From Pseudomonas leptonychotis (GTDB taxonomy: Bacteria; Pseudomonadota; Gammaproteobacteria; Pseudomonadales; Pseudomonadaceae): DNA of 64,000 bases. Where the stretch lies: positions 1,860,001 through 1,924,000 of the forward strand of contig NZ_RFLV01000001.1 of the NCBI RefSeq assembly GCF_004920405.1, in the 5' to 3' direction. How positions within the stretch are numbered: the first letter of the stretch is position 1; the number at the start of each line of letters is the position of its first letter. Of the stretch, positions 26,162-62,525 are shown in pieces. The notes under the pieces were generated by a model, which saw only the letters and a list, made by a program, of their open reading frames with translations, was not told where the DNA came from and did not search any database. The translations under genes and the position numbers were made by a program.

Positions 26162-26413
26162 CTAGCGTTGTTTATATTGCGTGGGGCAATACGCCCGGCC
26201 AACCTGCGGATCACGTAGCTGCAAATGCTTGGTCTGCCGACCGCTCACGCGCTCGCGCCATAGCTTAAAGCTGCTCGGCTTGAGGCTGCGCCGCATCACA
26301 GTAATAACCTCGCCCTCATTCAGGCCAAACTGCGCTTGAATGGCTTCGAAGGGCGTCCGATCTTCCCAAGCCATCTCAATAACCCGTGATAGCTCGCTTT
26401 CTGACTGCACCAT
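26162..26413 (-). CDS. DUF2805 / TIGR03643 small protein
   Basis: 83 aa from ATG 26413 (GAGG 8 nt upstream). The sequence ESELSRVIEMAWEDRTPFEAIQAQFGLNEGEVITVMRRSLKPSSFKLWRERVSGR matches the TIGR03643/DUF2805 family: a short helix-turn-helix-like protein of unknown role found widely in proteobacteria. Its base composition resembles the chromosome rather than the cassettes, and no attC adjoins it, so it probably marks the native edge beyond the array. DNA binding is possible but unproven. Confidence 0.8.
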   Translation of the reverse strand: MVQSESELSRVIEMAWEDRTPFEAIQAQFGLNEGEVITVMRRSLKPSSFKLWRERVSGRQTKHLQLRDPQVGRAYCPTQYKQR

Positions 26414-26526
26414 CTTGCACCTCACACGGCTGAAGGCTCTGGCGCTGATGCTGATGCTAGAGCCGTATTAGGACGCGAGCCACAGGCTGAAAATGCGTTG
26501 CCGCGTGTCCACACACGAGTTTGACC

Positions 26527-26542
26527 CTTGAACTGTTCGTTA
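26527..26542 (-). repeat. attC half-site relic at the distal end of the array
   Basis: On the minus strand GCATAACGAACAGTTCAA resembles the opening of the intact attC sites (TAACAAGTGGTTCAA), but no matching second half is found within 100 bp. It is probably the eroded attC of the MAPEG cassette. The gap 26414-26595 shows nothing else. Confidence 0.35.
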
Positions 26543-26595
26543 TGCGGAGTCTGCCGTGGGGTTCACTAAGATAGTGGGCCTACGTCCGCTGCACG

Positions 26596-27039
26596 TTAGC
26601 CAATACCGTGAATATCCCAAAGGGCGACAGCTGCAAGGTAAGTTAATGCAAATAGAGGGATGTTCGATAAAGCAAATAACAAAAACCTGATCTCGATTTT
26701 GTTTACGAGCGCCTGCACAAAACTGTGCACGATGCGCAATACGACGTACACCCACGCGAACAGCAGACCAGCCTGAGATTCAACACCCAATAAAGCAAGC
26801 GAGGCGGCAAGCGCATAGAAGAGGGTTGGCTGTTCTAACAAGTGGTTGTAGTTATCCGCCTTCCAGCGTACCTGCGCTGGCAGCAAAGACATTTGCTCTC
26901 CTCGCGGAGCATTCGAGTCAGGCTTCATTCTTGCGGCACGCATAGCCGGAAGTCGCGTGGCGTACATCCACAGCCACATCACCAGTGTCCATGCAATCAA
27001 CGCGACCATCGGAGCAACGAACTGCACAGATACTGTCAT
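26596..27039 (-). CDS. MAPEG-family membrane protein (cassette)
   Basis: 147 aa from ATG 27039, chosen because GGAG lies 6 nt upstream; two further in-frame ATGs (27045, 27051) are possible. Four hydrophobic helices alternate with short loops: VAPMVALIAWTLVMWLWMY, FYALAASLALLGV, LLFAWVYVVLRIVHSFV and LLFALSNIPLFALTYLAAVAL. The Arg-rich loop after helix 1 and the VLRIVHSFVQ segment fit the MAPEG superfamily (membrane glutathione-linked or eicosanoid enzymes), whose bacterial members mostly lack a known substrate. Last cassette of the array. Confidence 0.8.
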   Translation of the reverse strand: MTVSVQFVAPMVALIAWTLVMWLWMYATRLPAMRAARMKPDSNAPRGEQMSLLPAQVRWKADNYNHLLEQPTLFYALAASLALLGVESQAGLLFAWVYVVLRIVHSFVQALVNKIEIRFLLFALSNIPLFALTYLAAVALWDIHGIG

Positions 27040-27084
27040 GACCATCTCCATATCGTTGAGAGACTTTATGATGCATATGCTTAG

Positions 27085-27148
27085 TAACAGGGCGAGATTC
27101 TAGCCCGGTCGAGCGAACGCAGCGACTGATTTGAGTGCCTTGTTATAT
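27085..27148 (-). repeat. attC site 1 (short divergent form, GFA cassette)
   Basis: Plus strand TAACAGGGCGAGATTCTAGC ... CCTTGTTATAT. The ends TAACAGGGC and GCCTTGTTA can pair, and GAGCGAACGCAGCGA is shared with the other sites. It is shorter and more diverged than the 73-bp sites. Confidence 0.7.
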
Positions 27149-27154
27149 GTGAAC

Positions 27155-27571
27155 TCACATTTTTTCTGCGAAATGAGCCATTATTTCGGCTGTTGTCATT
27201 TCTTTTGTTTTGTTTGAAAAGCAATAGTAACTTGGCCGCATATCACTAAAGTACTGCATGTCCATTTCCAGGTCGTTCAAGTTTGGAAACATACCGGCTG
27301 GCATGTTGTATTCGCCGCTTTCTTTAAATTTAAAAAATAAATGAGTTCCGCACTCTATACAAAATCCGCGAGATGCCCACGCAGATGACTCATACGTTTT
27401 AACTTTATCACTTCCTTCAATTTGTACTTTAGTGCCGCACTTAACTGCAAAAAATGGGGCGCCACCCCAGGTTCTGCATGATTGGCAATGGCATACTGTA
27501 AATTTAGGATTAACTTCTTCTGCGGTAATTTTTACAGCGCCACAAAGGCAGTTTGTTTTTGAATGGGTCAT
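27155..27571 (-). CDS. GFA-family (Mss4-fold) zinc protein (cassette)
   Basis: 138 aa. The zinc-binding cysteines of the glutathione-dependent formaldehyde-activating (GFA/CENP-V) fold are all visible: CLCGAV near residue 9, CHCQSCRTWGG near 28, and FCIECGTHLFF near 73. Catalysis by this fold is proven for few members, so a formaldehyde role should not be assumed. Codon use is AT-rich compared with chromosomal neighbours. GFA proteins are frequent in cassette arrays of environmental bacteria. Confidence 0.88.
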   Translation of the reverse strand: MTHSKTNCLCGAVKITAEEVNPKFTVCHCQSCRTWGGAPFFAVKCGTKVQIEGSDKVKTYESSAWASRGFCIECGTHLFFKFKESGEYNMPAGMFPNLNDLEMDMQYFSDMRPSYYCFSNKTKEMTTAEIMAHFAEKM

Positions 27572-27600
27572 TTTGACTGCGCCTTATTGGATGAGCATAT

Positions 27601-27673
27601 AGTTTTCAAATTAAGGGGCGGGCTTTAGCCCGTCCCAGTGAGCGAAGTGTGCGGTCTGAACCACTAGTTAGGT
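27601..27673 (-). repeat. attC site 2 (one end degenerate, GNAT cassette)
   Basis: The core (TTAAGGGGCGGGCTTTAGCC) and the right end (CCACTAGTTAGGT) are intact, but the left end reads AGTTTTCAAA instead of TAACGTTTGG, so the AAC|GTT recombination triplet is lost there. The GFA and GNAT cassettes may therefore be locked together. Confidence 0.85.
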
Positions 27674-28192
27674 GCCGCCGACGCGGTGATGCTCGAAGCG
27701 CATGGAGTCGGGCTCCAGGCCTGCGCCTGCGGGCAAAAAACCACAGCGAGATAGAACCCCTATCGATGCTGGATTTTCGATTCGCGTGTGTGCAACAAGC
27801 AAGCTAACCTCCTCGAATGACAGTGCATGAGTCACCAACAATCTGACCATTTCACTCGCATATCCACGATTTTGCCACTCTGGAAGAACGGAGTAGCCAA
27901 TCTCAACAGTGCCTGTACTGTCTGGCGGACCATGGTATCCCGCAGCCCCAATAAGGGTCCGAGAACCCTCGGGTGTCTCTGAACCCAGGGCGTACCAGCC
28001 ATACCAGCCCTCAGCGCTTTCACCACCTTCCTCTAGTCGAGCCAGAAAGAACTCCATGGCATCTCTGTCATATTCGCCAGATGGCCAAGAAGATGAAATT
28101 TTCGCATCCAGCAGAGTGCAAAGTTGATCTGGAGCTTCAAGCTCTGTACGTATATGCGTGGCCGTTGAGGCGACAAGAAGAAGGCGGGTAGA
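27668..28192 (-). CDS. GNAT acetyltransferase (cassette), no canonical start codon
   Basis: The frame encodes a RimJ/RimL-type GNAT domain: TRLLLVASTATHIRTELEAP at the N-terminus, LIGAAGYHGPPDSTGTVEIGYSVLPEWQNRGYASEM as the acetyl-CoA site, and NPASIGVLSRCGFLPAG near the end. The first ATG in this frame (28057) would delete strand 1 and helix 1, so the true gene starts further up, to at least 28192. No ATG, GTG or TTG is found there in frame. A nearby ATG (MDI then stop) is in another frame, so either a rare start (ATT/CTG) is used or the 5' end has a frameshift. The stop lies in attC site 2. Confidence 0.75.
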   Translation of the reverse strand, partial: STRLLLVASTATHIRTELEAPDQLCTLLDAKISSSWPSGEYDRDAMEFFLARLEEGGESAEGWYGWYALGSETPEGSRTLIGAAGYHGPPDSTGTVEIGYSVLPEWQNRGYASEMVRLLVTHALSFEEVSLLVAHTRIENPASIGVLSRCGFLPAGAGLEPDSMRFEHHRVGGT

Positions 28193-28245
28193 TGCAATTG
28201 ATTTTAAAATGTTCAGATATCCATGGGTGTTGGTTTGGTGGCGTC

Positions 28246-28319
28246 TAACGTTTAAGCTAAGGGGCTGGCTTTAGCCAGTCCCAGTGAGCGAAGCGAACGA
28301 TTTGAGCGCATTGTTAGGC
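28246..28319 (-). repeat. attC site 3 (GIY-YIG cassette)
   Basis: TAACGTTTAAGCTAAGGGG ... GCATTGTTAGGC. Its inner stem reads CTGGC/GCCAG where the other sites have CGGGC/GCCCG, a paired change that keeps the hairpin. Confidence 0.92.
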
Positions 28320-28322
28320 GAA

Positions 28323-28898
28323 CTATTCACCTGTTGCAATATGCTTTCGGTTGGCTGTTCGTGTTAAGCGACCTTCCTTCATTAGCAAACCAATAATGCT
28401 GTAGCTCAGATAGTCTTTTGAGCCACCACCATAGTCTGACTGTAGGCCAAGATATTTTGCGGCATCCGAGTTTGAAATGCCGTGCGGGTTTGCCTTGGCT
28501 AGCTCCATTACGGCGGACTTCATAAGCTCAAGCGCCATTTGAGCTTTTTCATAACACCCGTCAGGGATGTTTGCTTTTATTTTTTGGCTAATGTTCTCTG
28601 TGTTAGGACGAACTTTATTTGTTAATAATCCACCCTGAGAACGAATTCCGAACGCTGAAATTAACTCGGCTTCAATTTTTAAAGCTTGCTGCTCCGTTAA
28701 GTTATCAGCAATTGTTGTGTGTATTACCTCATGTCCCGACGCTTTTATCTTTTGAATTACCGAGCTTTTTTCTGAATCGTCAATTTTTGTATGATGTTCC
28801 CAAGCTCGATTACCCGTCCCTTTACCAATATAGAAAGGCTTAGATGGCTTTTCTGTTGGGTCTTTAAGTGCATAAACGTAGAACGGATTTTGGGCCAT
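28323..28898 (-). CDS. GIY-YIG nuclease-like protein with C-terminal helical domain (cassette)
   Basis: 191 aa. The N-terminus has the GIY-YIG arrangement: FYVYALKDP (residues 6-14), FYIGKGTGNRAWEH (22-35; the conserved Arg follows the YIG strand), and a later Glu in KIEAELISAFG. This is the LEM3-like/DUF variant rather than UvrC. Residues about 105-191 form a separate helical, possibly winged-helix part (ISNSDAAKYLGLQ ... LSYSIIGLLMKEGRLTRT). Such a nuclease plus DNA-binding layout would fit restriction of invading DNA, but no function is shown. The start codon is 11 nt from the attC junction. Confidence 0.82.
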   Translation of the reverse strand: MAQNPFYVYALKDPTEKPSKPFYIGKGTGNRAWEHHTKIDDSEKSSVIQKIKASGHEVIHTTIADNLTEQQALKIEAELISAFGIRSQGGLLTNKVRPNTENISQKIKANIPDGCYEKAQMALELMKSAVMELAKANPHGISNSDAAKYLGLQSDYGGGSKDYLSYSIIGLLMKEGRLTRTANRKHIATGE

Positions 28899-28909
28899 GC
28901 TGGTTTGCC

Positions 28910-28982
28910 TAACGTTTGGTTAAGGGGCGGGCTTTAGCCCGTCCCAGCGAGCGGAGCGAGCGATTTGAACCAATTGTTATGC
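28910..28982 (-). repeat. attC site 4
   Basis: TAACGTTTGGTTAAGGGGCG ... CAATTGTTATGC, 73 bp. The stop codon of the following minus-strand gene (28977-28979) lies within it. Confidence 0.95.
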
Positions 28983-29525
28983 TTGGATTACTTCGTCTTT
29001 TTCGCGATTTCTAGCTGTTGCCACGTCACACCAACTCTGAAAAAGCTCAAATGCTCTTTCACCCCCCATTCCAGTCATGGCCTCTAACGTCCACTCATTG
29101 TTGGGGTCTAGAAAACCATGTGCCCAATCGACGCCTTTGATAAACATCGAGTGATCTGCATCTGCTGCGAAGGGCCAGGACACCTGAATGACGCCTGATA
29201 CTGCAAATATAACTCCAAGAAGAAATCCTTGAACCTCTCCATTCCAATCAAACCACTCTCCAGTTCGCCTATGCTGTACTAGGCTCTGATGCAGAGTTTC
29301 TTCCGCTGCTTTCCCTAAAAGCTTTGAATAGAAAATTAAATGCAATTTGCTTGGAGAGCCTGTACGTAAATTCGACAAGCGATTCAGAGGTGTCTTGGAA
29401 ATTCCTATTTTTACAGAGTTCGGCTCACCACAATAAATTAAATAAAGGCCCTCTACTGCGTCTTCGCTTACAGAGTATCCAGTTTGCGGGCCGAACAGAA
29501 TCCACTCTTTATTGAAATTTTCCAC
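28977..29525 (-). CDS. GIY-YIG superfamily protein, MUG113/T5orf172 type (cassette)
   Basis: 182 aa, starting at GTG 29525. Residues about 25-95 form a compact GIY-YIG-like domain: GLYLIYCGEPNSVKIGISKTPLNRLSNLRTGSPSKLHLIF, then EETLHQSLVQHRRTGEWFDW, which is the T5orf172/MUG113 signature. The second half (FLLGVIFAVSGVIQVSWPF ... MGGERAFELFQSWCDVA) is unrecognised and includes one hydrophobic stretch. It is unrelated in detail to the GIY-YIG protein of the neighbouring cassette. A role in DNA cleavage or defence is inferred from the fold only. Confidence 0.8.
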   Translation of the reverse strand: MENFNKEWILFGPQTGYSVSEDAVEGLYLIYCGEPNSVKIGISKTPLNRLSNLRTGSPSKLHLIFYSKLLGKAAEETLHQSLVQHRRTGEWFDWNGEVQGFLLGVIFAVSGVIQVSWPFAADADHSMFIKGVDWAHGFLDPNNEWTLEAMTGMGGERAFELFQSWCDVATARNREKDEVIQA

Positions 29526-29549
29526 GTTAGTATTTCTTTCTAGGTTGCA

Positions 29550-29624
29550 TAACGTTCAGGTTAAGGGGCGGGCTTTAGCCCGTCCCGAGTGAGCGAAGCG
29601 AACGACTTGAACCGCTTGTTAGGC
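29550..29624 (-). repeat. attC site 5 (CAGG subtype)
   Basis: TAACGTTCAGGTTAAGGGG ... ACCGCTTGTTAGGC. It shares the CAGG and CGCTTG variants only with site 8 (31222-31295). Confidence 0.95.
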
Positions 29625-29776
29625 TCGCGCTTGAGCCGAACGCTGTAAACGGAAGCAGCACGATAGCCAACATTGTTTTTGATTTTAAGTGCTGCCTCAT
29701 GTGGTTCCTTCGCTTTGCCTCTTGGCCTTTGGAGCGCCTCAGCGCCAGCGTGATGGTCTTGTTCTAGCTGAATGCA

Positions 29777-29995
29777 TCAGAGTTCAGATTCAACCATTAG
29801 CTTTATTTTTGTAGCTTTCTCGAAGTGATCCAGTTTGTGGGTTTTTATCCACCATGTTGCAGCCTCCATAAGAAGCTCTGGATCATCATTTTTGTTTGCG
29901 AAGAACGCGTAAAAAGAAACTCCAACCGACTCACCTTTGGACAGTATTTTTTTCGCACATACGCTGACAATTTTCTCTCTTAGATCTTGTCGCAT
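29777..29995 (-). CDS. DUF6500-like small protein (cassette)
   Basis: 72 aa from ATG 29995: MRQDLREKIVSVCAKKILSKGESVGVSFYAFFANKNDDPELLMEAATWWIKTHKLDHFEKATKIK. I recognise the YAFFANKNDDPELLMEAATWWI pattern as that of small conserved proteins now grouped as DUF6500; the function is unknown. After the TGA stop the same frame stays open for over 50 codons into the attC, and that tail is related to the tail of the cassette at 31296-31599. Confidence 0.7.
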   Translation of the reverse strand: MRQDLREKIVSVCAKKILSKGESVGVSFYAFFANKNDDPELLMEAATWWIKTHKLDHFEKATKIKLMVESEL

Positions 29996-30016
29996 GAATC
30001 TGAACTGCCCTATACC

Positions 30017-30089
30017 TAACGTTTGGTTAAGGGGCGGGCTTTAGCCCGTCCCAGTGAGCGCAGCGAACGATTTGAACCACTAGTTAGAA
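30017..30089 (-). repeat. attC site 6
   Basis: TAACGTTTGGTTAAGGGGCG ... CCACTAGTTAGAA, 73 bp, intact core. The ankyrin gene ends inside it. Confidence 0.95.
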
Positions 30090-30493
30090 GCCAGGAACGC
30101 AGCAATTTCGGGCCTTTCGTGCTTTTTTGCTATGTCGTATGCGGTATTGCCCTGAGCATCCTTTGCTTCTTTTTCTGCGCCTGCCTTGAGCAGTAATTTT
30201 ACAGACTTGAGGTCTGACCTTGCAGCCCAGTGGAGCGGTGTCATGTTGTTTGTATTCTTTGCTTTTATATCGTGACGGGCACCAACTGATAGCAAGAAAA
30301 GAACGGTACTTGAATGCCCCCAAGCAGCTGCACCATGCAATGGAGTTTCACCTGCAGCATCAATATGGTTTACGTCTGCTCCTTTTCTAACTAGGCGGCG
30401 GGCTTTGCGAAGGTTACCCGCCCAAGCAATGGCATGAAGCTCTGTTTCTGCTCCGCCATCCATTGCATTGCCAGGCTCAAATTTCTTATTCAT
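30080..30493 (-). CDS. Ankyrin-repeat protein (cassette)
   Basis: 137 aa consisting almost wholly of four ankyrin repeats: TELHAIAWAGNLRKARRLVRKGADVNH, TPLHGAAAWGHSSTVLFLLSVGA, TPLHWAARSDLKSVKLLLKAGA and TAYDIAKKHERPEIAAFL. No signal peptide or enzyme domain is seen. Ankyrin proteins bind partner proteins; a solo unit may be an inhibitor, immunity or adaptor protein. The start codon lies only about 7 nt from the attC junction and has no Shine-Dalgarno sequence. Confidence 0.92.
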   Translation of the reverse strand: MNKKFEPGNAMDGGAETELHAIAWAGNLRKARRLVRKGADVNHIDAAGETPLHGAAAWGHSSTVLFLLSVGARHDIKAKNTNNMTPLHWAARSDLKSVKLLLKAGAEKEAKDAQGNTAYDIAKKHERPEIAAFLASN

Positions 30494-30499
30494 GGCTTC

Positions 30500-30572
30500 T
30501 AACGTTTGGTTAAGGGGGGGGCTTTAGCCCGTCCCAGTGAGCGAAGCGAGCGATTTGAACCAGTTGTTAGAT
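30500..30572 (-). repeat. attC site 7
   Basis: TAACGTTTGGTTAAGGGGGG ... CAGTTGTTAGAT. It carries one unpaired change in the central stem (GGGGG instead of GCGGG) that is not compensated. Confidence 0.94.
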
Positions 30573-31211
30573 GCCACCGCAGAATACCTCCTCCCAGTCA
30601 TCCATGAGGCAGTTGCTATCTAGCGCTTTACCCTGCCAGTTGCCTGTTTTTAGCAGTCCAGTAACTGCCATATGTTGGATAGAATTTGTGTAGGCACCAG
30701 AGTTGTTTAGCTTTGTACCCCAGGGTCTCTGACAATATCCCCAAAGAACTGGATTGGTTACATTGCAAACTGTGCTCGTAATTGGTTGTTCTTTATGAAA
30801 TTTCTCAGCCCTGAGCGCCATTACGATAACGGAGCCAAATGTTAGCTCAGTGTCACTGGAGTGGGCGCGGTTATTCATTGCCATGAAGAAATCAGGAGGG
30901 ACACCCTCTTTTTCACACTGGCCCAGTGATGGTGCCCAGATTTGTGTATCAATAAATATTTTGTCTTCGGCGTCGCTGTGGCACCATTTTTGGTGTGATT
31001 TCTCATTCCACCCAATGCGGCCGAATTTAACTTGGTTTTTTCCGTTTGCTTCGAGTTGCTGCGACCTGACCGAAGTGTTTCCACGGCAGCTTGTAATGAT
31101 TTTGTTGAAGGGCTCTGTAATGGAAAGCCACTTTTTATGGTTCCATATAGGCTGCTCTTCCGCGCGCGGTAGAAAAAACCATAGATGATAATTGTGGTCA
31201 CAGTAGTTCAT
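30567..31211 (-). CDS. Hypothetical protein, unrecognised (cassette)
   Basis: 214 aa. I do not recognise a family. The protein starts MNYCDHNYHLWFFLPRAEEQPIWNHKKWL, is rich in Trp, Cys and His (for example KWCHSDAEDKIFIDTQIWAPSLGQCEKEGVPPDFF), and has no signal peptide or membrane helix. EDKIFIDTQIW with later acidic residues could be an enzymatic core, but no motif is firm. The end DDWEEVFCGGI overlaps attC site 7. AT-rich codon use matches the other cassettes. The start is 10 nt from the attC junction. Confidence 0.75.
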   Translation of the reverse strand: MNYCDHNYHLWFFLPRAEEQPIWNHKKWLSITEPFNKIITSCRGNTSVRSQQLEANGKNQVKFGRIGWNEKSHQKWCHSDAEDKIFIDTQIWAPSLGQCEKEGVPPDFFMAMNNRAHSSDTELTFGSVIVMALRAEKFHKEQPITSTVCNVTNPVLWGYCQRPWGTKLNNSGAYTNSIQHMAVTGLLKTGNWQGKALDSNCLMDDWEEVFCGGI

Positions 31212-31221
31212 GAGTGGCTTC

Positions 31222-31295
31222 TAACGTTCAGGTTAAGGGGCGGGCTTTAGCCCGTCCCAGCGAGCGAAGCGAGTGATTTGAACCGCTTGTTAGGC
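31222..31295 (-). repeat. attC site 8 (CAGG subtype)
   Basis: TAACGTTCAGGTTAAGGGGC ... ACCGCTTGTTAGGC, the sister of site 5. The cassette sequence next to both sites is also related. Confidence 0.95.
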
Positions 31296-31376
31296 TCGCG
31301 CTTGAGCCGAGCGCTGTAAGCGGAAACAGCACGGTAGCTGGCAATGCTTTTGCTTTTAAGTGCTGTGCCTGATCTT

Positions 31377-31571
31377 TCATGCTGTTTGTGCCGTTTCATG
31401 TGCTTTTTCTGCTTGGCGATTTTTGAGCGCCTCAGCGCCAGCGCGATTCCATGGCCGGTGTGCCGGATATTGTTGAACCAGGATTGTTTGGCCCGCCCGC
31501 GATTTCAAATACCCAAGATTCTTTTCATGAGAAATACACGGTTTTGAACTATTGAATCCGCGATTTTCCAT
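31377..31571 (-). CDS. Doubtful small ORF in cassette 31296-31599
   Basis: 64 codons from ATG 31571 (28 nt from the attC junction), encoding MENRGFNSSKPCISHEKNLGYLK ... AGAEALKNRQAEKAHETAQTA. It is the only minus-strand ORF of any size in this 304-bp cassette. No family is recognised. The AGAEAL tail resembles the in-frame tail behind the DUF6500-like gene, so it may be a decayed end of an older gene. The cassette might be non-coding. Confidence 0.35.
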   Translation of the reverse strand: MENRGFNSSKPCISHEKNLGYLKSRAGQTILVQQYPAHRPWNRAGAEALKNRQAEKAHETAQTA

Positions 31572-31599
31572 GCGAGCACATTCCTTTGCTTTGTATGCC

Positions 31600-31672
31600 T
31601 AACGTTTGGTTAAGGGGCGGGCTTTAGCCCGTCCCAGTGAGCGTAGCGAACGGTTTGAACCACTTGTTAGGC
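31600..31672 (-). repeat. attC site 9
   Basis: TAACGTTTGGTTAAGGGGCG ... CCACTTGTTAGGC, 73 bp, with GCGTAGCGAACGG in place of GCGAAGCGAACGA. Confidence 0.95.
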
Positions 31673-31676
31673 AGCA

Positions 31677-31937
31677 CTATTGATCACGCTCGAAACGTTT
31701 GTTGAATAGTTCATTTGTATATTCTGGTGCTAGGTCTTTGTCATCAATACTCTTGCAAGTTTTGATGACTTCAATGCAGTCGGGGCAGGTGATCTGGCCT
31801 TGTCCCTCTTCTATTCCATCGGCGTCTGGGTGAATAGCTGTGCTGCAAAAAGCAAAACCCTCGACGCCATAACCATGAATTCGTAGCCAAGAGATGCCAT
31901 GCATATTGGTAACACGTTCGATGAGGGTGTGAGCCAT
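31677..31937 (-). CDS. Hypothetical small Cys-rich protein (cassette)
   Basis: 86 aa from ATG 31937, 13 nt from the attC junction. Sequence features: SWLRIHGYGVEGFAFCSTAIHPDADG and ITCPDCIEVIKTCKSIDD. The C...CPDC spacing suggests a small zinc-ribbon-like fold. Proteins with a HGYG...TCPDC layout occur in phages and mobile elements, but I know no assigned function. Confidence 0.7.
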   Translation of the reverse strand: MAHTLIERVTNMHGISWLRIHGYGVEGFAFCSTAIHPDADGIEEGQGQITCPDCIEVIKTCKSIDDKDLAPEYTNELFNKRFERDQ

Positions 31938-31950
31938 GTGTTGTGCTGCC

Positions 31951-32023
31951 TAACGTTTGGTTAAGGGGCGGGCTTTAGCCCGTCCCAGTGAGCGAAGCGA
32001 ACGATTTAAACCACTTGTTAGGC
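31951..32023 (-). repeat. attC site 10
   Basis: TAACGTTTGGTTAAGGGGCG ... CCACTTGTTAGGC, 73 bp, with GATTTAAACC in place of GATTTGAACC. Confidence 0.95.
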
Positions 32024-32029
32024 AGTGCA

Positions 32030-32449
32030 TTATTCGAATTGAAATTTTGATTTCCAACTTAAATTATTATTTATAAATAGACTTAAAATCTCAATCATTT
32101 CGTTTGTGCTTTCAGGAGGCAAATTGGTGACTAATTCTATGTTTTCAGAACGATTGCGATAACTTGCAGAGAGGCCGTCAATTCCATTGAGAGAACCACC
32201 GACCTCCATTGTTTGCCCAGGGTGCAGCGTGCAAATTACTTGATAAAAGCCGCTCTGCCAATCTAAAGAGAGAATGGTATCTCTTATTGAATTATCGGAT
32301 ATCTCATTGGTTGATAGCTCAATGCTAGAACCGTAATCATATATGACATGTATGCCTACAGTCAGCTCATGTGGTTCGGGATCAATGCTTCCAAATTTCC
32401 TTATTTTATTTCCGCCGGCAGACAAAATAAAATTAATCAACCAATTCAT
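32030..32449 (-). CDS. Hypothetical protein, unrecognised (cassette)
   Basis: 139 aa. No family recognised. Notable segments are MNWLINFILSAGGNKIRKFGSIDPEPHELTVGIHVIYDYGSSIELS, LSLDWQSGFYQVICTLHPGQTMEVGGSLNGIDGLSASYRNRSENIELV and a C-terminal helix EMIEILSLFINNNLSWKSKFQFE. Alternating strands and a short acidic helix resemble small immunity or adaptor proteins in size and pattern, but this is only an impression. The start is about 20 nt from the attC junction. Confidence 0.72.
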   Translation of the reverse strand: MNWLINFILSAGGNKIRKFGSIDPEPHELTVGIHVIYDYGSSIELSTNEISDNSIRDTILSLDWQSGFYQVICTLHPGQTMEVGGSLNGIDGLSASYRNRSENIELVTNLPPESTNEMIEILSLFINNNLSWKSKFQFE

Positions 32450-32469
32450 GTTTGTTCCAGCCTCATGCC

Positions 32470-32542
32470 TAACGTTTGGTTAAGGGGCGGGCTTTAGCCC
32501 GTCCCAGTGAGCGAAGTGAACGATTTGAGCGCATTGTTATGT
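32470..32542 (-). repeat. attC site 11
   Basis: TAACGTTTGGTTAAGGGGCG ... GCATTGTTATGT. The right end (GAGCGCATTG) is shared with site 3. The DUF2971 stop codon is at 32537-32539, inside the site. Confidence 0.95.
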
Positions 32543-33337
32543 GACTCGCCCACGACGTTTGGCCTCTAGATAGCTGGTATAAGTGAACTCTTCAAATATC
32601 ACTTCGAACCTTTCCTGGCTTCGATTGCCACGCCAAAATCTAACATTTTGATTCTGGCCGGCAAGTATTAAGCAGACTATCTCTAACGAATTGCTGTCGA
32701 TGTCTGGCCAGAAATATACCGATTCTAATGCGTCAGCTTCATATGTATATAAAGTGCCTGCTTGCTCGTGCATGCACCGCCATTCTTTTTCGTACTCCCA
32801 AGACTTTGATTTTGTGCAAAATAAGTCAAGCATCTCATCAAAGTTGTCATTTAGTAGTGCCTTAATTGCGTTAATTTTAGGCATTGTCCGTGTGTACTTA
32901 ACTTTGACCATTTTGCTAAATGGTTCAAACTTTGTTGAAAAGGCAAGACAAAACCCTTTGTATTTGCCACCATAATGCGACCACATTAGAAGGTCATCGT
33001 TACATTCCGAAAAACAGCTAACCCCTCTGGTTTTTAAAAAATCCCTAGCATGGCTTTCAAGTATTTTATGGGTGGAACGTACGACTATATCGCGTAATTT
33101 ATCGTGGCCGGTTTCCGCAAACTGCTTTTTAACATTCTCAGGAACGCTATTACTATTCTGGTATTCCGATTTTAAAGTGTCTAACTCTTCATCTGTCGGA
33201 ATAGCTATGCCCGCACTTAAAGCACAGTCGTAGGGGTCGTTAAATCCAAGTGGGGAACCGAAATATATCGATTGTGCCTTGAGATTTTTCAAGCTTTGCG
33301 CAGAAAAACTTTCGTACTTATAAATAATTTCTGGCAT
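32537..33337 (-). CDS. DUF2971 domain protein (cassette)
   Basis: 266 aa. Family signature: IYKYESFSAQSLKNLKAQSIYFGSPLGFNDPYDC at the N-terminus, GVSCFSECNDDLLMWSHYGGKYKGFCLAFS in the middle, and KSKSWEYEKEWRCM further on. DUF2971 proteins are frequent in defence islands and mobile elements; their biochemistry is unknown, and the conserved FNDPYD, MWSHY and WEYEKEWR blocks suggest an enzyme. Second cassette from the proximal end, so expected to be well expressed if a promoter is present. Confidence 0.9.
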   Translation of the reverse strand: MPEIIYKYESFSAQSLKNLKAQSIYFGSPLGFNDPYDCALSAGIAIPTDEELDTLKSEYQNSNSVPENVKKQFAETGHDKLRDIVVRSTHKILESHARDFLKTRGVSCFSECNDDLLMWSHYGGKYKGFCLAFSTKFEPFSKMVKVKYTRTMPKINAIKALLNDNFDEMLDLFCTKSKSWEYEKEWRCMHEQAGTLYTYEADALESVYFWPDIDSNSLEIVCLILAGQNQNVRFWRGNRSQERFEVIFEEFTYTSYLEAKRRGRVT

Positions 33338-33351
33338 CAGGATTAGTCACA

Positions 33352-33424
33352 TAACGTTTGGTTAAGGGGCGGGCTTTAGCCCGTCCCAGTGAGCGCAGCG
33401 AACGATTTGAACCATTTGTTAGAT
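33352..33424 (-). repeat. attC site 12 (first cassette)
   Basis: TAACGTTTGGTTAAGGGGCG ... CCATTTGTTAGAT, 73 bp, intact. It belongs to the HsdR_N nuclease cassette, the first of the array. Confidence 0.95.
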
Positions 33425-33467
33425 GTACATCCTGTACACATTAACCGGCCGATTTATGAAGAGTGCG

Positions 33468-34289
33468 TTAACTAGTTTCTTCAGTAGTGGCGAATTTGGC
33501 TTGATAGTAGTTTGTCAGCGCCTCTTTGGACGCTCGGGAATAAAGCTCGCCAAAACATAAAGATAGGGATTCTCTTTCGCATGAAAATATTGGTGAGAGC
33601 TGGCCAATTCGCCCTCGTGAAATATGAAATAGCTGAACAATTTTGCTATCGGTTATCAAGAAAAAATCGCATTGAGTCCAGAGGCAATAGCTTTTTGCTT
33701 GGTTGTGTGCATTTAGAAGTTCTTGCTGCTTAAGTAGACGCCCTTCTTTTTTTGCCTCAACCGTTAACAATGGTTGGTTTTTTAATGAGTCGTCACTGTT
33801 GTTGAATAGAGCGAAGTCTATGACAAGAGTTGTATTCCGTGAACCATGGGCTGCGGGAACAGGCATGCCATCGTACCTATCATCCTCCGCATAACCAAGG
33901 CGAGTTAGCAGCGGAATGATAAACTTTGTTTCAACTTCTTTTTCTGTTCGGAGCTCTAGCTCTGAAACTCTATCGAACCAGCCATCAGCATTCCATGTTG
34001 ATAATGCAGATGGCGCTGGTTGATCTGGAAGTGTATTGCAGGACAAATATATCCAGTCCTGTTGTGATATTTCCCAGCGCTCTCCGAACCTAACAATTGG
34101 AGGGTTTATTGATAGTCCTTCACAAGTTAGCAATTCTGTAATTTTTGCAGTGTTGGTGTCTGATCTTTTCTCTACGCCAAACTTAGTTAGTAATGTACGT
34201 AATTTTAGACGCTTTGATCCTGTAGATGATTTCTCTACATCGCATTTAATCGCTTTGGCAATGCTTTCATCTGATTGTGTTAAGGACAT
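33468..34289 (-). CDS. HsdR_N-type (PD-(D/E)XK) nuclease protein (cassette)
   Basis: 273 aa from ATG 34289. Residues 1-95 form an unassigned N-terminal region (SKRLKLRTLLTKFGVEKRSDTNTAKITELL, possibly DNA-binding). Residues 108-225 match the N-terminal nuclease of type I restriction subunits: EKEVETKFIIPLLTRLGY, Asp158 in LVIDFAL, Glu178-x-Lys180 in TVEAKKEG, then NAHNQAKSYCLWTQCDFFLITD. There is no helicase part, so it is a stand-alone nuclease rather than a broken HsdR. First cassette, nearest the candidate promoter at 34342-34369. Confidence 0.85.
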   Translation of the reverse strand: MSLTQSDESIAKAIKCDVEKSSTGSKRLKLRTLLTKFGVEKRSDTNTAKITELLTCEGLSINPPIVRFGERWEISQQDWIYLSCNTLPDQPAPSALSTWNADGWFDRVSELELRTEKEVETKFIIPLLTRLGYAEDDRYDGMPVPAAHGSRNTTLVIDFALFNNSDDSLKNQPLLTVEAKKEGRLLKQQELLNAHNQAKSYCLWTQCDFFLITDSKIVQLFHISRGRIGQLSPIFSCERESLSLCFGELYSRASKEALTNYYQAKFATTEETS

Positions 34290-34310
34290 ACGCAGTCTCA
34301 AATAAAGGGG

Positions 34311-34319
34311 GCATCTAAC
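34311..34319 (-). other. Proximal recombination junction, possible attI remnant
   Basis: Minus strand GTTAGATGC at the upstream edge of the first cassette matches the GTTAG(A/G) end found at each attC. The sequence before it (CATGTCGTACAATTAATA) is unrelated to attC, so it is a candidate remnant of the attI primary site. No integrase gene adjoins it. Confidence 0.45.
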
Positions 34320-34341
34320 TATTAATTGTACGACATGGCCA

Positions 34342-34369
34342 TATGTAGGCTTATATCCACTGGTGGCAA
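34342..34369 (-). promoter_or_regulatory. Candidate cassette promoter (Pc-like)
   Basis: On the minus strand TTGCCA (34364-34369) and TACATA (34342-34347) are 16 bp apart and point into the array. A second -10-like TACAAT lies at 34325-34330. Such a promoter is expected beside attI; strength and use are not known. Confidence 0.4.
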
Positions 34370-34373
34370 TAAG

Positions 34374-34412
34374 TATCCACATCTGGCTATCGCGTATCCA
34401 TATCTGACCATC
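34374..34412. repeat. Tandem 18-bp repeats containing TGGATA
   Basis: TATCCACATCTGGCTATC (34374-34391) is repeated as TATCCATATCTGACCATC (34395-34412), and a third TATCCAC occurs at 34353-34359, all about 21 bp apart. Iterated terminal repeats of this sort are seen at ends of IS21-type elements, but no transposase is present. They might instead be protein-binding repeats. Confidence 0.45.
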
Positions 34413-34761
34413 ACGGTGTGATGATCCGTTCTTCTAGCCCCAGCGCTACCACCGCGGTGTAAGGCACTAACCAGGCCTTTTGTGCGGGCTGCCATGTGCC
34501 GCCGGCCTGTTTAACTGCCAGCTGCAGGTCTTTTTCGTGGTAGAGGATGCGCAGGGCTACGCTGGCCGGGTGGTGTGTCACCGGCTGGGCGTGAAGGCTG
34601 GGTAGTTTGGGTTTACGTTCGACGATCAGTTCGACTGTGGTGTAGCTGATCTGCCGCTCCGCATCGAGGCGGTAGCGCACGGCAACTAGGTCTTCGCCGT
34701 AGCGCTCGACAAAGCGTTTGGTGCCGTTTTTTCCTGGCTTGAGACTTTTTACAACATCCAT
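34411..34761 (-). CDS. Conserved hypothetical protein
   Basis: 116 aa from ATG 34761 (GGGG upstream), reading MDVVKSLKPGKNGTKRFVERYGEDLVAVRYRLDAERQISYTTVELIVERKP, then AVKQAGGTWQPAQKAWLVPYTAVVALGLEERI. I have the impression of related small proteins next to transposable elements in proteobacteria, but I cannot name a family. The end WQPAQKAWLVPY resembles a short fold that reads peptide or nucleic acid. It sits outside the array, between the tandem repeats and hacB. Confidence 0.65.
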   Translation of the reverse strand: MDVVKSLKPGKNGTKRFVERYGEDLVAVRYRLDAERQISYTTVELIVERKPKLPSLHAQPVTHHPASVALRILYHEKDLQLAVKQAGGTWQPAQKAWLVPYTAVVALGLEERIITP

Positions 34762-34897
34762 ATTGTGCCCCGCTGGGTGGCCGTGTCCTGCTGGCAGTCT
34801 GCCTGTATCCAGTGGGTGGCTCAAGCTTTGGTGCGAGCGAAGGCATTGCGCTCCTCGCGGTGTCGGTTGCTTAGTTTGCGGGGGCGTTGAGATCCTG

Positions 34898-61632: not shown

Positions 61633-62525
61633 TCTGTGCTGCCTTTACGTTTGGCCCGTGGATGGGCCTGGTCATAGACCGTGGCCAGGTGCTGGAAATC
61701 CAGGTGGGTGTAGACCTGGGTGGTGGCGATATCGGCGTGGCCGAGCAGTTCCTGTACCGCGCGCAAGTCCTGGGACGACTCCAGCATATGACTGGCGAAA
61801 CTGTGGCGCAGCATATGCGGATGCAGATGTTGGCCGAGTTCGCGCACGCCGGCCTGACGCACGCGAAGCTGCACCGCCCGCGGGCCGATGCGGCGGCCCT
61901 GTTGGCTGATAAACACCGCACCATCGGCTGGATTGGCCAGCGCCCGCAGCGGCAGCCAGTGTTCCATGGCTTGGCGTGCCATGCGCCCAAGCGGTAATTC
62001 GCGAGTCTTGTTGCCCTTGCCGAGTACCCGCACCAGACCGGCAGGCAGGTCGAGGCCATCCAGGTTGAGGCCCACCAGCTCTGACAAGCGCAAGCCTGAC
62101 GAATAGAACAGCTCCAGCATGGCCTGGTCGCGGCGGGCAATAAAGTCGTCCTCCAGGGCGCCGTCGAGCAATTGCGCAGTGCGGTCGGCATCCAGGGTTT
62201 TTGGCAAGCGGCGTTCGCCCTTGGGCGGCATCAGGCCGCTGGCGGGGTCGCTTTGGCAGTGGCCTTCACGGATCAGGTAGCGGTAAAGGCCGCGAGTGGC
62301 GGAAAGCAGGCGCGCCAGGCTGCGACTGGATTGGCCTTGCATGTGCAGGCGACCGACCATGCGGCGCAAGCGTGCCGCGTCGAGCAGCGCCCAGCTGTCG
62401 ATCTGCTCTTGGCTACAGAACTGCAACAGGGTGCTCAGGTCGTGACCGTAGCCGCTCAGGGTGTGGGGAGAAAGCTGGCGCTCGCTGCGCAGGTGTTCCA
62501 GGTAGGCGTCCAGTAGGTCTTGCAT
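61629..62525 (-). CDS. xerC: Tyrosine recombinase XerC
   Basis: 298 aa, normal XerC size. The full catalytic set is present: Arg146 (GLRLSEL), Lys170, His237 and Arg240 ([14 protein letters not shown]), His263 ([17 protein letters not shown]) and Tyr272. It lacks the extra patch typical of integron integrases. XerC with XerD resolves chromosome dimers at dif. It is third in the dapF operon. Confidence 0.97.

What the first reader, a model, noticed from the sequence alone, without database searches (positions are those of the whole stretch)
26162..34761. Integrase-less integron cassette array inserted between spuH and hacB
Twelve attC sites and about 13 minus-strand cassettes fill the place where P. 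aeruginosa has spuH directly followed by hacB. No intI gene is found at either edge. The array is therefore a CALIN: either integrase was lost, or cassettes were inserted here in trans by an integrase elsewhere. Most encoded proteins are nucleases or unknowns rather than resistance genes. Chromosomal integron cassettes have recently been shown to carry anti-phage functions, so the whole block is a candidate reservoir of undescribed defence genes.
Basis: partly seen in the sequence, partly recalled or inferred. Interest (0 to 1): 0.85.

Follow-up and report, generated by a model that had tools for sequence, protein, structure and literature searches.

The report
Integrase-free second integron docking platform
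The row of captured genes is real and sits behind a docking site with its own small gene but no recombinase; the same layout recurs in over a dozen related bacteria, most of which carry the integron recombinase elsewhere in the genome, which suggests a satellite integron worked from a distance, though no experiment has tested this.

Summary
Confirmed: 12 attC sites (CM E ≤1.2e-4), all minus-strand, 27062–33428, and no integron integrase in the window. Corrected: 34411–34761 is not a cassette and 26162–26425 is chromosomal. The genome does carry intI, with a broken frame, on another contig beside rimO.

The main finding is the left edge. A 116-aa gene (34411–34761) is followed by phased repeats and a 23-bp block identical to the attI core beside intI. 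The gene with an attI-like core recurs in 15 of 16 Pseudomonas modules, at several loci, with differing first cassettes and no intI found nearby. Relatives of the gene in other gammaproteobacteria precede attI-like sites in 6 of 11 loci (by eye). Carriers usually have intI elsewhere: genus 9 of 11 against 38 of 387; class 12 of 13 against 131 of 355. In two genomes both attI sites hold the same first cassette.

Reading: a dedicated integrase-free attI platform served in trans. Trans action and the small protein's role are inferred; several genomes do not fit the matching-core pattern.

The parts
34796..34824 (-). promoter-like element TTGAGC-N17-CAGACT upstream of the platform gene
   Evidence: present in 13 of 15 Pseudomonas modules, 0 of 8 outside; not a sigma-70 consensus match; function inferred
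34411..34761 (-). platform gene 'orf116' (116 aa; the listed 137-aa frame starts at 34824)
   Evidence: 52 homologues; dN/dS 0.16-0.42 in 9 pairs; no Pfam or NCBIfam match over cut-off for the window protein
34337..34406 (-). four phased near-palindromic repeats (CAGATATGGATA type) at about +8, +29, +49, +66 after the stop codon
   Evidence: sequences; repeat register read by eye in four modules
34315..34337 (-). attI-like core; 23 bp identical to attI beside intI; crossover expected in GTT 34319-34317
33345..33428 (-). attC 1
32463..32546 (-). attC 2
31944..32027 (-). attC 3
31593..31676 (-). attC 4
31215..31299 (-). attC 5
30493..30576 (-). attC 6
30010..30093 (-). attC 7
29543..29628 (-). 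attC 8
28903..28986 (-). attC 9
28239..28323 (-). attC 10
27593..27677 (-). attC 11, R' box degenerate
   Evidence: 62.8 bits; sequence
27062..27152 (-). attC 12, divergent
   Evidence: 25.6 bits, E 1.2e-4
33468..34289 (-). cassette 1 ORF, HsdR_N-like domain
   Evidence: Pfam PF13588 2.7e-6, scanned as the 304-aa frame
32537..33337 (-). cassette 2 ORF, DUF2971; PADLOC candidate family PDC-S31
32030..32449 (-). cassette 3 ORF, no family
31677..31937 (-). cassette 4 ORF, no family over cut-off
31377..31571 (-). cassette 5, only a 64-aa frame; perhaps ORF-less
30567..31211 (-). cassette 6 ORF, no family
30080..30493 (-). cassette 7 ORF, ankyrin repeats
29777..29995 (-). cassette 8 ORF, DUF6500
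28977..29525 (-). cassette 9 ORF, GIY-YIG type (MUG113/T5orf172)
28323..28898 (-). cassette 10 ORF, LEM-3-like GIY-YIG
27668..28057 (-). cassette 11 ORF, GNAT acetyltransferase
27155..27571 (-). cassette 12 ORF, GFA family
26596..27051 (-). terminal MAPEG gene, probably a last cassette without recognisable attC
   Evidence: no attC behind it by the model

Best explanation
The array is the cassette train of a second, integrase-free integron platform. The platform has a conserved 116-aa gene (orf116) with an upstream element, phased repeats, an attI-like core ending in GTT, and then cassettes on the same strand. Cassettes would be inserted at this attI-like site by the resident IntI, encoded at another locus (rimO) and acting in trans. 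Orf116 most likely binds the repeats and either helps IntI use the site or controls transcription into the cassettes. Shown: the anatomy, its recurrence, differing first cassettes, the identical attI core in this genome, and co-occurrence with a distant intI. Inferred: trans recombination, DNA binding by Orf116, and cassette expression from its promoter. In this genome the intI frame is broken before its last ~40 residues, where tyrosine recombinases carry the catalytic tyrosine (recalled), so both arrays may now be frozen unless the break is a sequencing error.
For: (1) attI core: 23 of 23 bp identical to attI beside intI; 20 bp of it, with up to 1 mismatch, occurs only at these two places in this genome and in none of 297 other genus genomes. 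(2) Layout: 15 of 16 Pseudomonas modules have orf116 followed by an attI-like core (the 16th, G013, is a remnant); attC follow in 13 of 15. Stop-to-GTT distance is 96-97 in 11 of 15, 99-100 in 3 and 76 in P. peli. (3) No intI was found in these 15 loci or in 11 loci outside the genus. (4) intI is elsewhere in 12 of the 15 genomes. In the genus 9 of 11 orf116 genomes have intI against 38 of 387 others; in the class 12 of 13 against 131 of 355. (5) First 260 bp behind 20 platforms: the only match between any two is 51 bp. (6) Among 34 first cassettes (17 at intI-attI, 17 at platforms) the only two matches that start within 60 bp of the GTT at E up to 1e-8 are each within one genome: G117 122 of 123 bp, G300 97 of 99 bp (chance about 9e-4). 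(7) Core similarity within genomes exceeds permuted partners: 17 genomes, 11.4 against 9.1 of 17 positions, p 3e-5; 11 representatives with misfits kept, p 2e-4. (8) Contrast: a third array in this genome starts at an attI relic that has drifted and lost its GTT.
Against: No recombination was observed. Own intI is broken. The window array shares no segment over 130 bp with the other own arrays. Cores do not match in G390 and G147 (3 of 17) or G637 and G745 (4 of 17) and only partly in HMWF032, G060 and G259 (10-12 of 17). At several distant genomes (G490, G535, G453, G435, G650, G701) attI at intI or at the platform was not resolved and they were left out. The association tests do not correct for phylogeny, and matching cores could also come from gene conversion or shared descent. 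The flank behind orf116 is short in three loci (L049 1.2 kb, L173 0.55 kb, L172 0.2 kb). Outside the genus only L230, L233, L234 and L236 of 11 loci show attC-like sites, L238 marginally. L169 has the attI-like core but no attC by the model. The promoter-like element is not a sigma-70 consensus match.
Confidence: 0.74

Rival explanations
1. Fossil integron: a complete integron once stood at hacB, lost intI, and the attI and cassettes are leftovers with orf116 a bystander.
For: A MAG relative (L054) has an intact intI plus attI directly after hacB, and P. guineae has a 46-aa intI remnant there. Own intI is broken. A third own array looks like such a fossil.
Against: The orf116-attI unit stands at other chromosomal loci and in other families, with varying first cassettes, and the gene is under purifying selection. 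Its attI core is intact here whereas the fossil's is not.
Confidence: 0.13
2. Ectopic attG insertion: IntI put cassettes into an arbitrary chromosomal site.
For: A known process, which I know only as cited in other papers (Loot et al. 2024; passages). IntI is present in the genome.
Against: The junction carries the genome's own attI core behind a conserved gene and repeats.
Confidence: 0.04
3. The orf116 plus attI unit is itself a mobile cassette of the delta-attI type, which seeds arrays wherever it lands.
For: Delta-attI cassettes exist in mobile integrons (passages). The unit sits at several loci.
Against: No GTT is conserved at its 5' edge by eye; conservation there is the promoter-like element. 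No match in 72,556 plasmid records with one homologue (P0041) or in 50,697 phage records with orf116.
Confidence: 0.06
4. Chance or assembly artefact.
For: Draft genome of 29 contigs with repetitive arrays.
Against: The array lies inside a 2.3 Mb contig, and the unit recurs in the one-contig genome G345.
Confidence: 0.03

Closest known systems
Sedentary chromosomal integron (intI-attI-cassette array)
   Same: attC type, attI core, cassette array, first cassettes that differ between genomes
   Different: no intI at the site; orf116 and phased repeats stand where intI and its flank would be
[quoted passage not shown]
   Same: at least 2 attC and no intI nearby
   Different: three origins have been proposed (off-target insertion, loss of intI, rearrangement; passage in PMC8618304); this would be a fourth, a dedicated attI platform
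Secondary CALINs of Xanthomonas
   Same: extra arrays at a few recurrent loci away from the intI locus (passages in PMC12444791)
   Different: no attI-like core or dedicated gene is mentioned in the passages I saw
attG insertion sites
   Same: cassette insertion away from intI
   Different: here the junction carries the attI core
delta-attI-type gene cassettes
   Same: an attI-derived site outside its normal place
   Different: those are cassettes of mobile integrons (passages in PMC12901181); here a chromosomal gene with its own upstream element

Membership tests
CALIN | two or more attC sites in a cluster | tested here: met
   12 sites
CALIN | no integron integrase nearby | tested here: met
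   no IntI over cut-off in the window
Complete integron | intI next to the array | tested here: not met
   intI is on contig C5 beside rimO
Complete integron | attI site at the start of the array | tested here: met
   by sequence only: 23 bp identical to the intI-linked attI core; use by IntI not tested
Complete integron | cassette promoter Pc | tested here: inconclusive
   upstream element in 13 of 15 modules but no sigma-70 consensus
Complete integron | active intI in the same genome | tested here: inconclusive
   own intI matches the model in two frames, 1-274 and 274-314; a real break and a sequencing error cannot be told apart here
attG insertion | junction is a chromosomal site unlike attI | tested here: not met
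   junction carries the attI core
DUF5710 or another named family, for orf116 | Pfam or NCBIfam model over its cut-off | tested here: not met
   window protein: DUF5710 15.6 bits against 26.5, nothing in NCBIfam. 12 of 24 family members match DUF5710 weakly (best 8.6e-6), and one homologue, P0037, is listed with that domain, so a distant kinship of the C-terminal half is possible
Known fold, for orf116 | fold shared with a solved structure | tested here: inconclusive
Anti-phage defence genes | full-length match to a tested defence family | tested here: inconclusive
   10 cassette proteins against PADLOC: only candidate (PDC), partial or domain-level matches. Cassettes 5 and 12, the MAPEG gene and orf116 were not scanned there

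The most novel reading that the evidence does not exclude
Gammaproteobacteria carry an undescribed satellite integron: a dedicated integrase-free attI platform with its own small DNA-binding protein and phased operator array, which lets one IntI run two or more arrays at distant chromosomal sites and puts the second array under separate expression control.
Probability: 0.5. Interest if true: 0.82.

Novelty: new variant of a known kind. Interest (0 to 1): 0.74.

Why it matters
The proposed origins of CALINs are off-target insertion, loss of intI, or rearrangement (passage in PMC8618304). A conserved platform without integrase would make some of them organised satellite arrays and give one integrase more than one place to store and express cassettes. 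It would add a new protein family and a new regulatory site to integron biology. IntegronFinder 2.0 does not detect attI outside class 1 integrons (passage in PMC9024848), so such platforms would be filed as CALINs. It makes directly testable whether an attI far from intI is used in nature.

Tried and rejected
attG insertion was my first expectation; it fell when the junction proved to carry the genome's attI core. A delta-attI cassette origin for orf116 was set aside because no GTT is conserved by eye at its 5' edge. A hairpin between orf116 and attI was noticed by eye; near-palindromic repeats could explain it and no covariation test was run. RNAalifold gave no pair for the attC alignment, so a structure written by hand was used and the model leans towards it (82.6% of cells paired, 0 of 500 shuffles as high, but pairs changed on both sides are no more than in shuffles, 206 of 500). 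The model's E-values are rough. A strict generic attC scan found only a part of the model's sites in Pseudomonas, so its misses elsewhere mean little. Structure comparison of orf116 gave nothing decisive and there was no PDB sequence hit.

Choices behind the core test: G581 was left out because I had located its intI-side attI by likeness to the platform. G721 has two intI and G745 more than one; I used the one whose upstream stretch I judged to hold an attI (L252, L253), which may favour a match. G637 and G745 were kept although they do not fit. A subset of 8 genomes (p 1.7e-4) left out the misfits G390, G060 and HMWF032 and is not relied on; the 11-genome subset keeps them (p 2e-4); six distant genomes give p 0.003. 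Of 13 class genomes with an orf116 relative, G448 and G667 were not fetched. The two genus searches and the two class searches are taken to be the same draws, as their sizes and handles agree.

Literature: ten searches listed no paper whose title or abstract start describes an integrase-free attI platform with a dedicated gene. I read only passages of PMC12901181, PMC12444791, PMC11023631, PMC4405911, PMC9024848 and PMC8618304. Cury 2016 and Loot 2024 are not held and are known to me only as cited. Most subscription papers are missing from the library, so this is weak evidence of novelty.
Full report
WHAT WAS CHECKED. The finding described twelve attC sites and about thirteen minus-strand cassettes between spuH and hacB without intI. 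Repeat search gives 11 copies. A covariance model of 39 Pseudomonas-type attC, four of them from the window, gives 12 matches in the 64 kb, all minus-strand, 27062–33428. The last is degenerate and the eleventh has a damaged R' box. Twelve attC-bounded cassettes follow, then a MAPEG gene without recognisable attC. DUF2805 (26162–26425) is chromosomal: it neighbours spuH in P. guineae, where no attC was found.

INTEGRASE. No IntI over cut-off lies in the window; the recombinase at 61677–62504 scores at most 70.6 bits against 265. The genome has one IntI match over cut-off, at C5:204537–205477 beside rimO (rimO named by me from its sequence). The model matches in two frames, 1–274 and 274–314, so the frame is broken near the C-terminus; the first frame ends soon after the HTLRHSFATHLL stretch. 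A real break and a sequencing error cannot be told apart here. attC of the same type lie at the end of C5 (1), along C9 (22) and C11 (6), and at the start of C1 (21). I infer, but cannot show, that these contigs form one intI-linked array. A third array with 6 attC by the model lies at C1 about 2.140–2.147 Mb.

THE LEFT EDGE. Reading along the array strand: an upstream element TTGAGC-N17-CAGACT, a 116-aa gene (orf116), four near-palindromic repeats about 20 bp apart (by eye), then CATGTCGTACAATTAATAGTTAG. These 23 bp are identical to the attI core beside intI. A search for 20 bp of it with one mismatch allowed, in this genome and 297 other genus genomes, found only these two places. So the array starts at an attI core, not at an arbitrary site.

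RECURRENCE. Eighty hacB loci from named genomes were fetched. Eight of 80 carry attC downstream of hacB (L047, L048, L049, L050, L051, L052, L054, L058), seven with orf116 and one, L054, with intI itself. A genus search found orf116 in 11 of 398 genomes. Counting genomes once, there are 15 Pseudomonas modules plus one remnant (G013). In 15 of 16 the gene is followed by an attI-like core, and attC follow in 13 of 15 (not L169; L172 ends 0.2 kb on). Several modules are not at hacB but beside other genes. Distance from stop codon to GTT is 96–97 in 11 of 15, 99–100 in three and 76 in P. peli, where about one repeat length is missing, orf116 is broken and no intI over cut-off was found. No intI was found in the 15 loci, though the flank behind orf116 is short in L049, L172 and L173. 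Of the 15 genomes, 12 have intI over cut-off elsewhere; L048's genome and P. peli do not, and G147 has a fragment. The first 260 bp after GTT share nothing beyond one 51-bp match among 20 platforms. The window array shares no segment of 150 bp or more with six other hacB-locus arrays.

OUTSIDE THE GENUS. With a family alignment, 14 of 369 class genomes including this one have a relative. Eleven of the other 13 were fetched. By eye, in six (L230, L232, L233, L234, L235, L236) the gene is followed by an attI-like sequence with GTT; in two (L228, L231) weakly; in three (L229, L237, L238) not. attC-like sites follow in L230, L233, L234 and L236, and marginally in L238. No intI was found in these 11 loci with three intI queries.

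CO-OCCURRENCE. In the genus, intI (E ≤1e-60) is in 47 of 398 genomes; 9 of 11 orf116 genomes have it against 38 of 387 others (without the own genome p 6.9e-7). The two exceptions are P. peli and G147. In the class, 144 of 369 have intI; of the 13 other orf116 genomes 12 do at that threshold and 13 at 1e-30, against 131 of 355 at 1e-60 (p 7.6e-5). Phylogeny is not corrected. Where both lie on one contig they can be far apart, for example 0.95 Mb in G345 and 1.1 Mb in G193 (positions).

MATCHING CORES. For 17 genomes both cores could be read. Within-genome similarity averages 11.4 of 17 against 9.1 when partners are permuted (p 3e-5); 11 representatives, misfits kept, give p 2e-4 and six distant ones 0.003. 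P. xionganensis and G482 have cores unlike the usual one, yet agree within the genome (13 and 14 of 17). Misfits are G390 and G147 (3 of 17) and G637 and G745 (4 of 17), with partial fits in HMWF032, G060 and G259 (10–12). Gene conversion or shared descent could also make cores alike. In G117 and G300 the same first cassette stands at both sites (122 of 123 and 97 of 99 bp); these are the only two matches, of 561 possible pairs, that start within 60 bp of the GTT at E ≤1e-8. The G300 copy runs into a stretch read as N and the G117 platform contig ends there. In the own genome no cassette is shared between the window array and the other arrays.

CONTRAST. The third array of this genome begins at a recognisable attI relic (0 of 2000 shuffles as good) that has drifted and lost its GTT; no orf116 copy lies there, since the genome has only one. 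This is what a fossil looks like here; the window site does not look like it.

ORF116. 52 homologues, dN/dS 0.16–0.42 in nine pairs. The window protein matches no family over cut-off; DUF5710 is weakly matched by 12 of 24 members, and one homologue is listed with it. No PDB sequence match; two small alpha/beta domains in a moderate model (pLDDT 84, pTM 0.40); no clear structural relative. Binding to the repeats is inferred from near-constant spacing and joint occurrence only.

CARGO. Ten cassette proteins were scanned against PADLOC: one near full-length match to a candidate family (PDC-S31), others partial. Defence is possible but not shown.

CONCLUSION. The best reading is an integrase-free second attI platform with its own gene, served in trans by the resident IntI, now perhaps idle in this genome. 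It works like the attI half of an integron; it is not a complete integron because intI is not there.

Noticed in passing
L040:4029-10542 (G000:C1 about 2.140-2.147 Mb): A third integrase-less cassette array in the same genome (6 attC by the model), starting at a decayed attI relic beside a gene that looks by eye like a substrate-binding protein.
   Followed up: partly
L036:8606-9556: The genome's only IntI match over cut-off, beside rimO, has a broken reading frame near its C-terminus.
   Followed up: partly
window:26450-34340: A blastn of the array finds 108 plasmid records; in the 15 rows listed the match is an attC-sized stretch of about 75-100 bp, most on Pseudomonas plasmids, several from patients.
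   Followed up: no
L054:11397-12600: A MAG relative has intI and attI directly after hacB, with a transposase-like ORF behind attI (by eye); P. guineae has a 46-aa intI remnant after hacB.
   Followed up: partly
window:16773-16952: Pseudomonas P1 small RNA (Rfam RF00623, 115.8 bits).
   Followed up: no
window:29585-29694 and 31256-31365: Two array segments 86% alike over 110 nt, reaching beyond the attC core, in cassettes 8 and 5; perhaps a duplicated ORF-less cassette.
   Followed up: no
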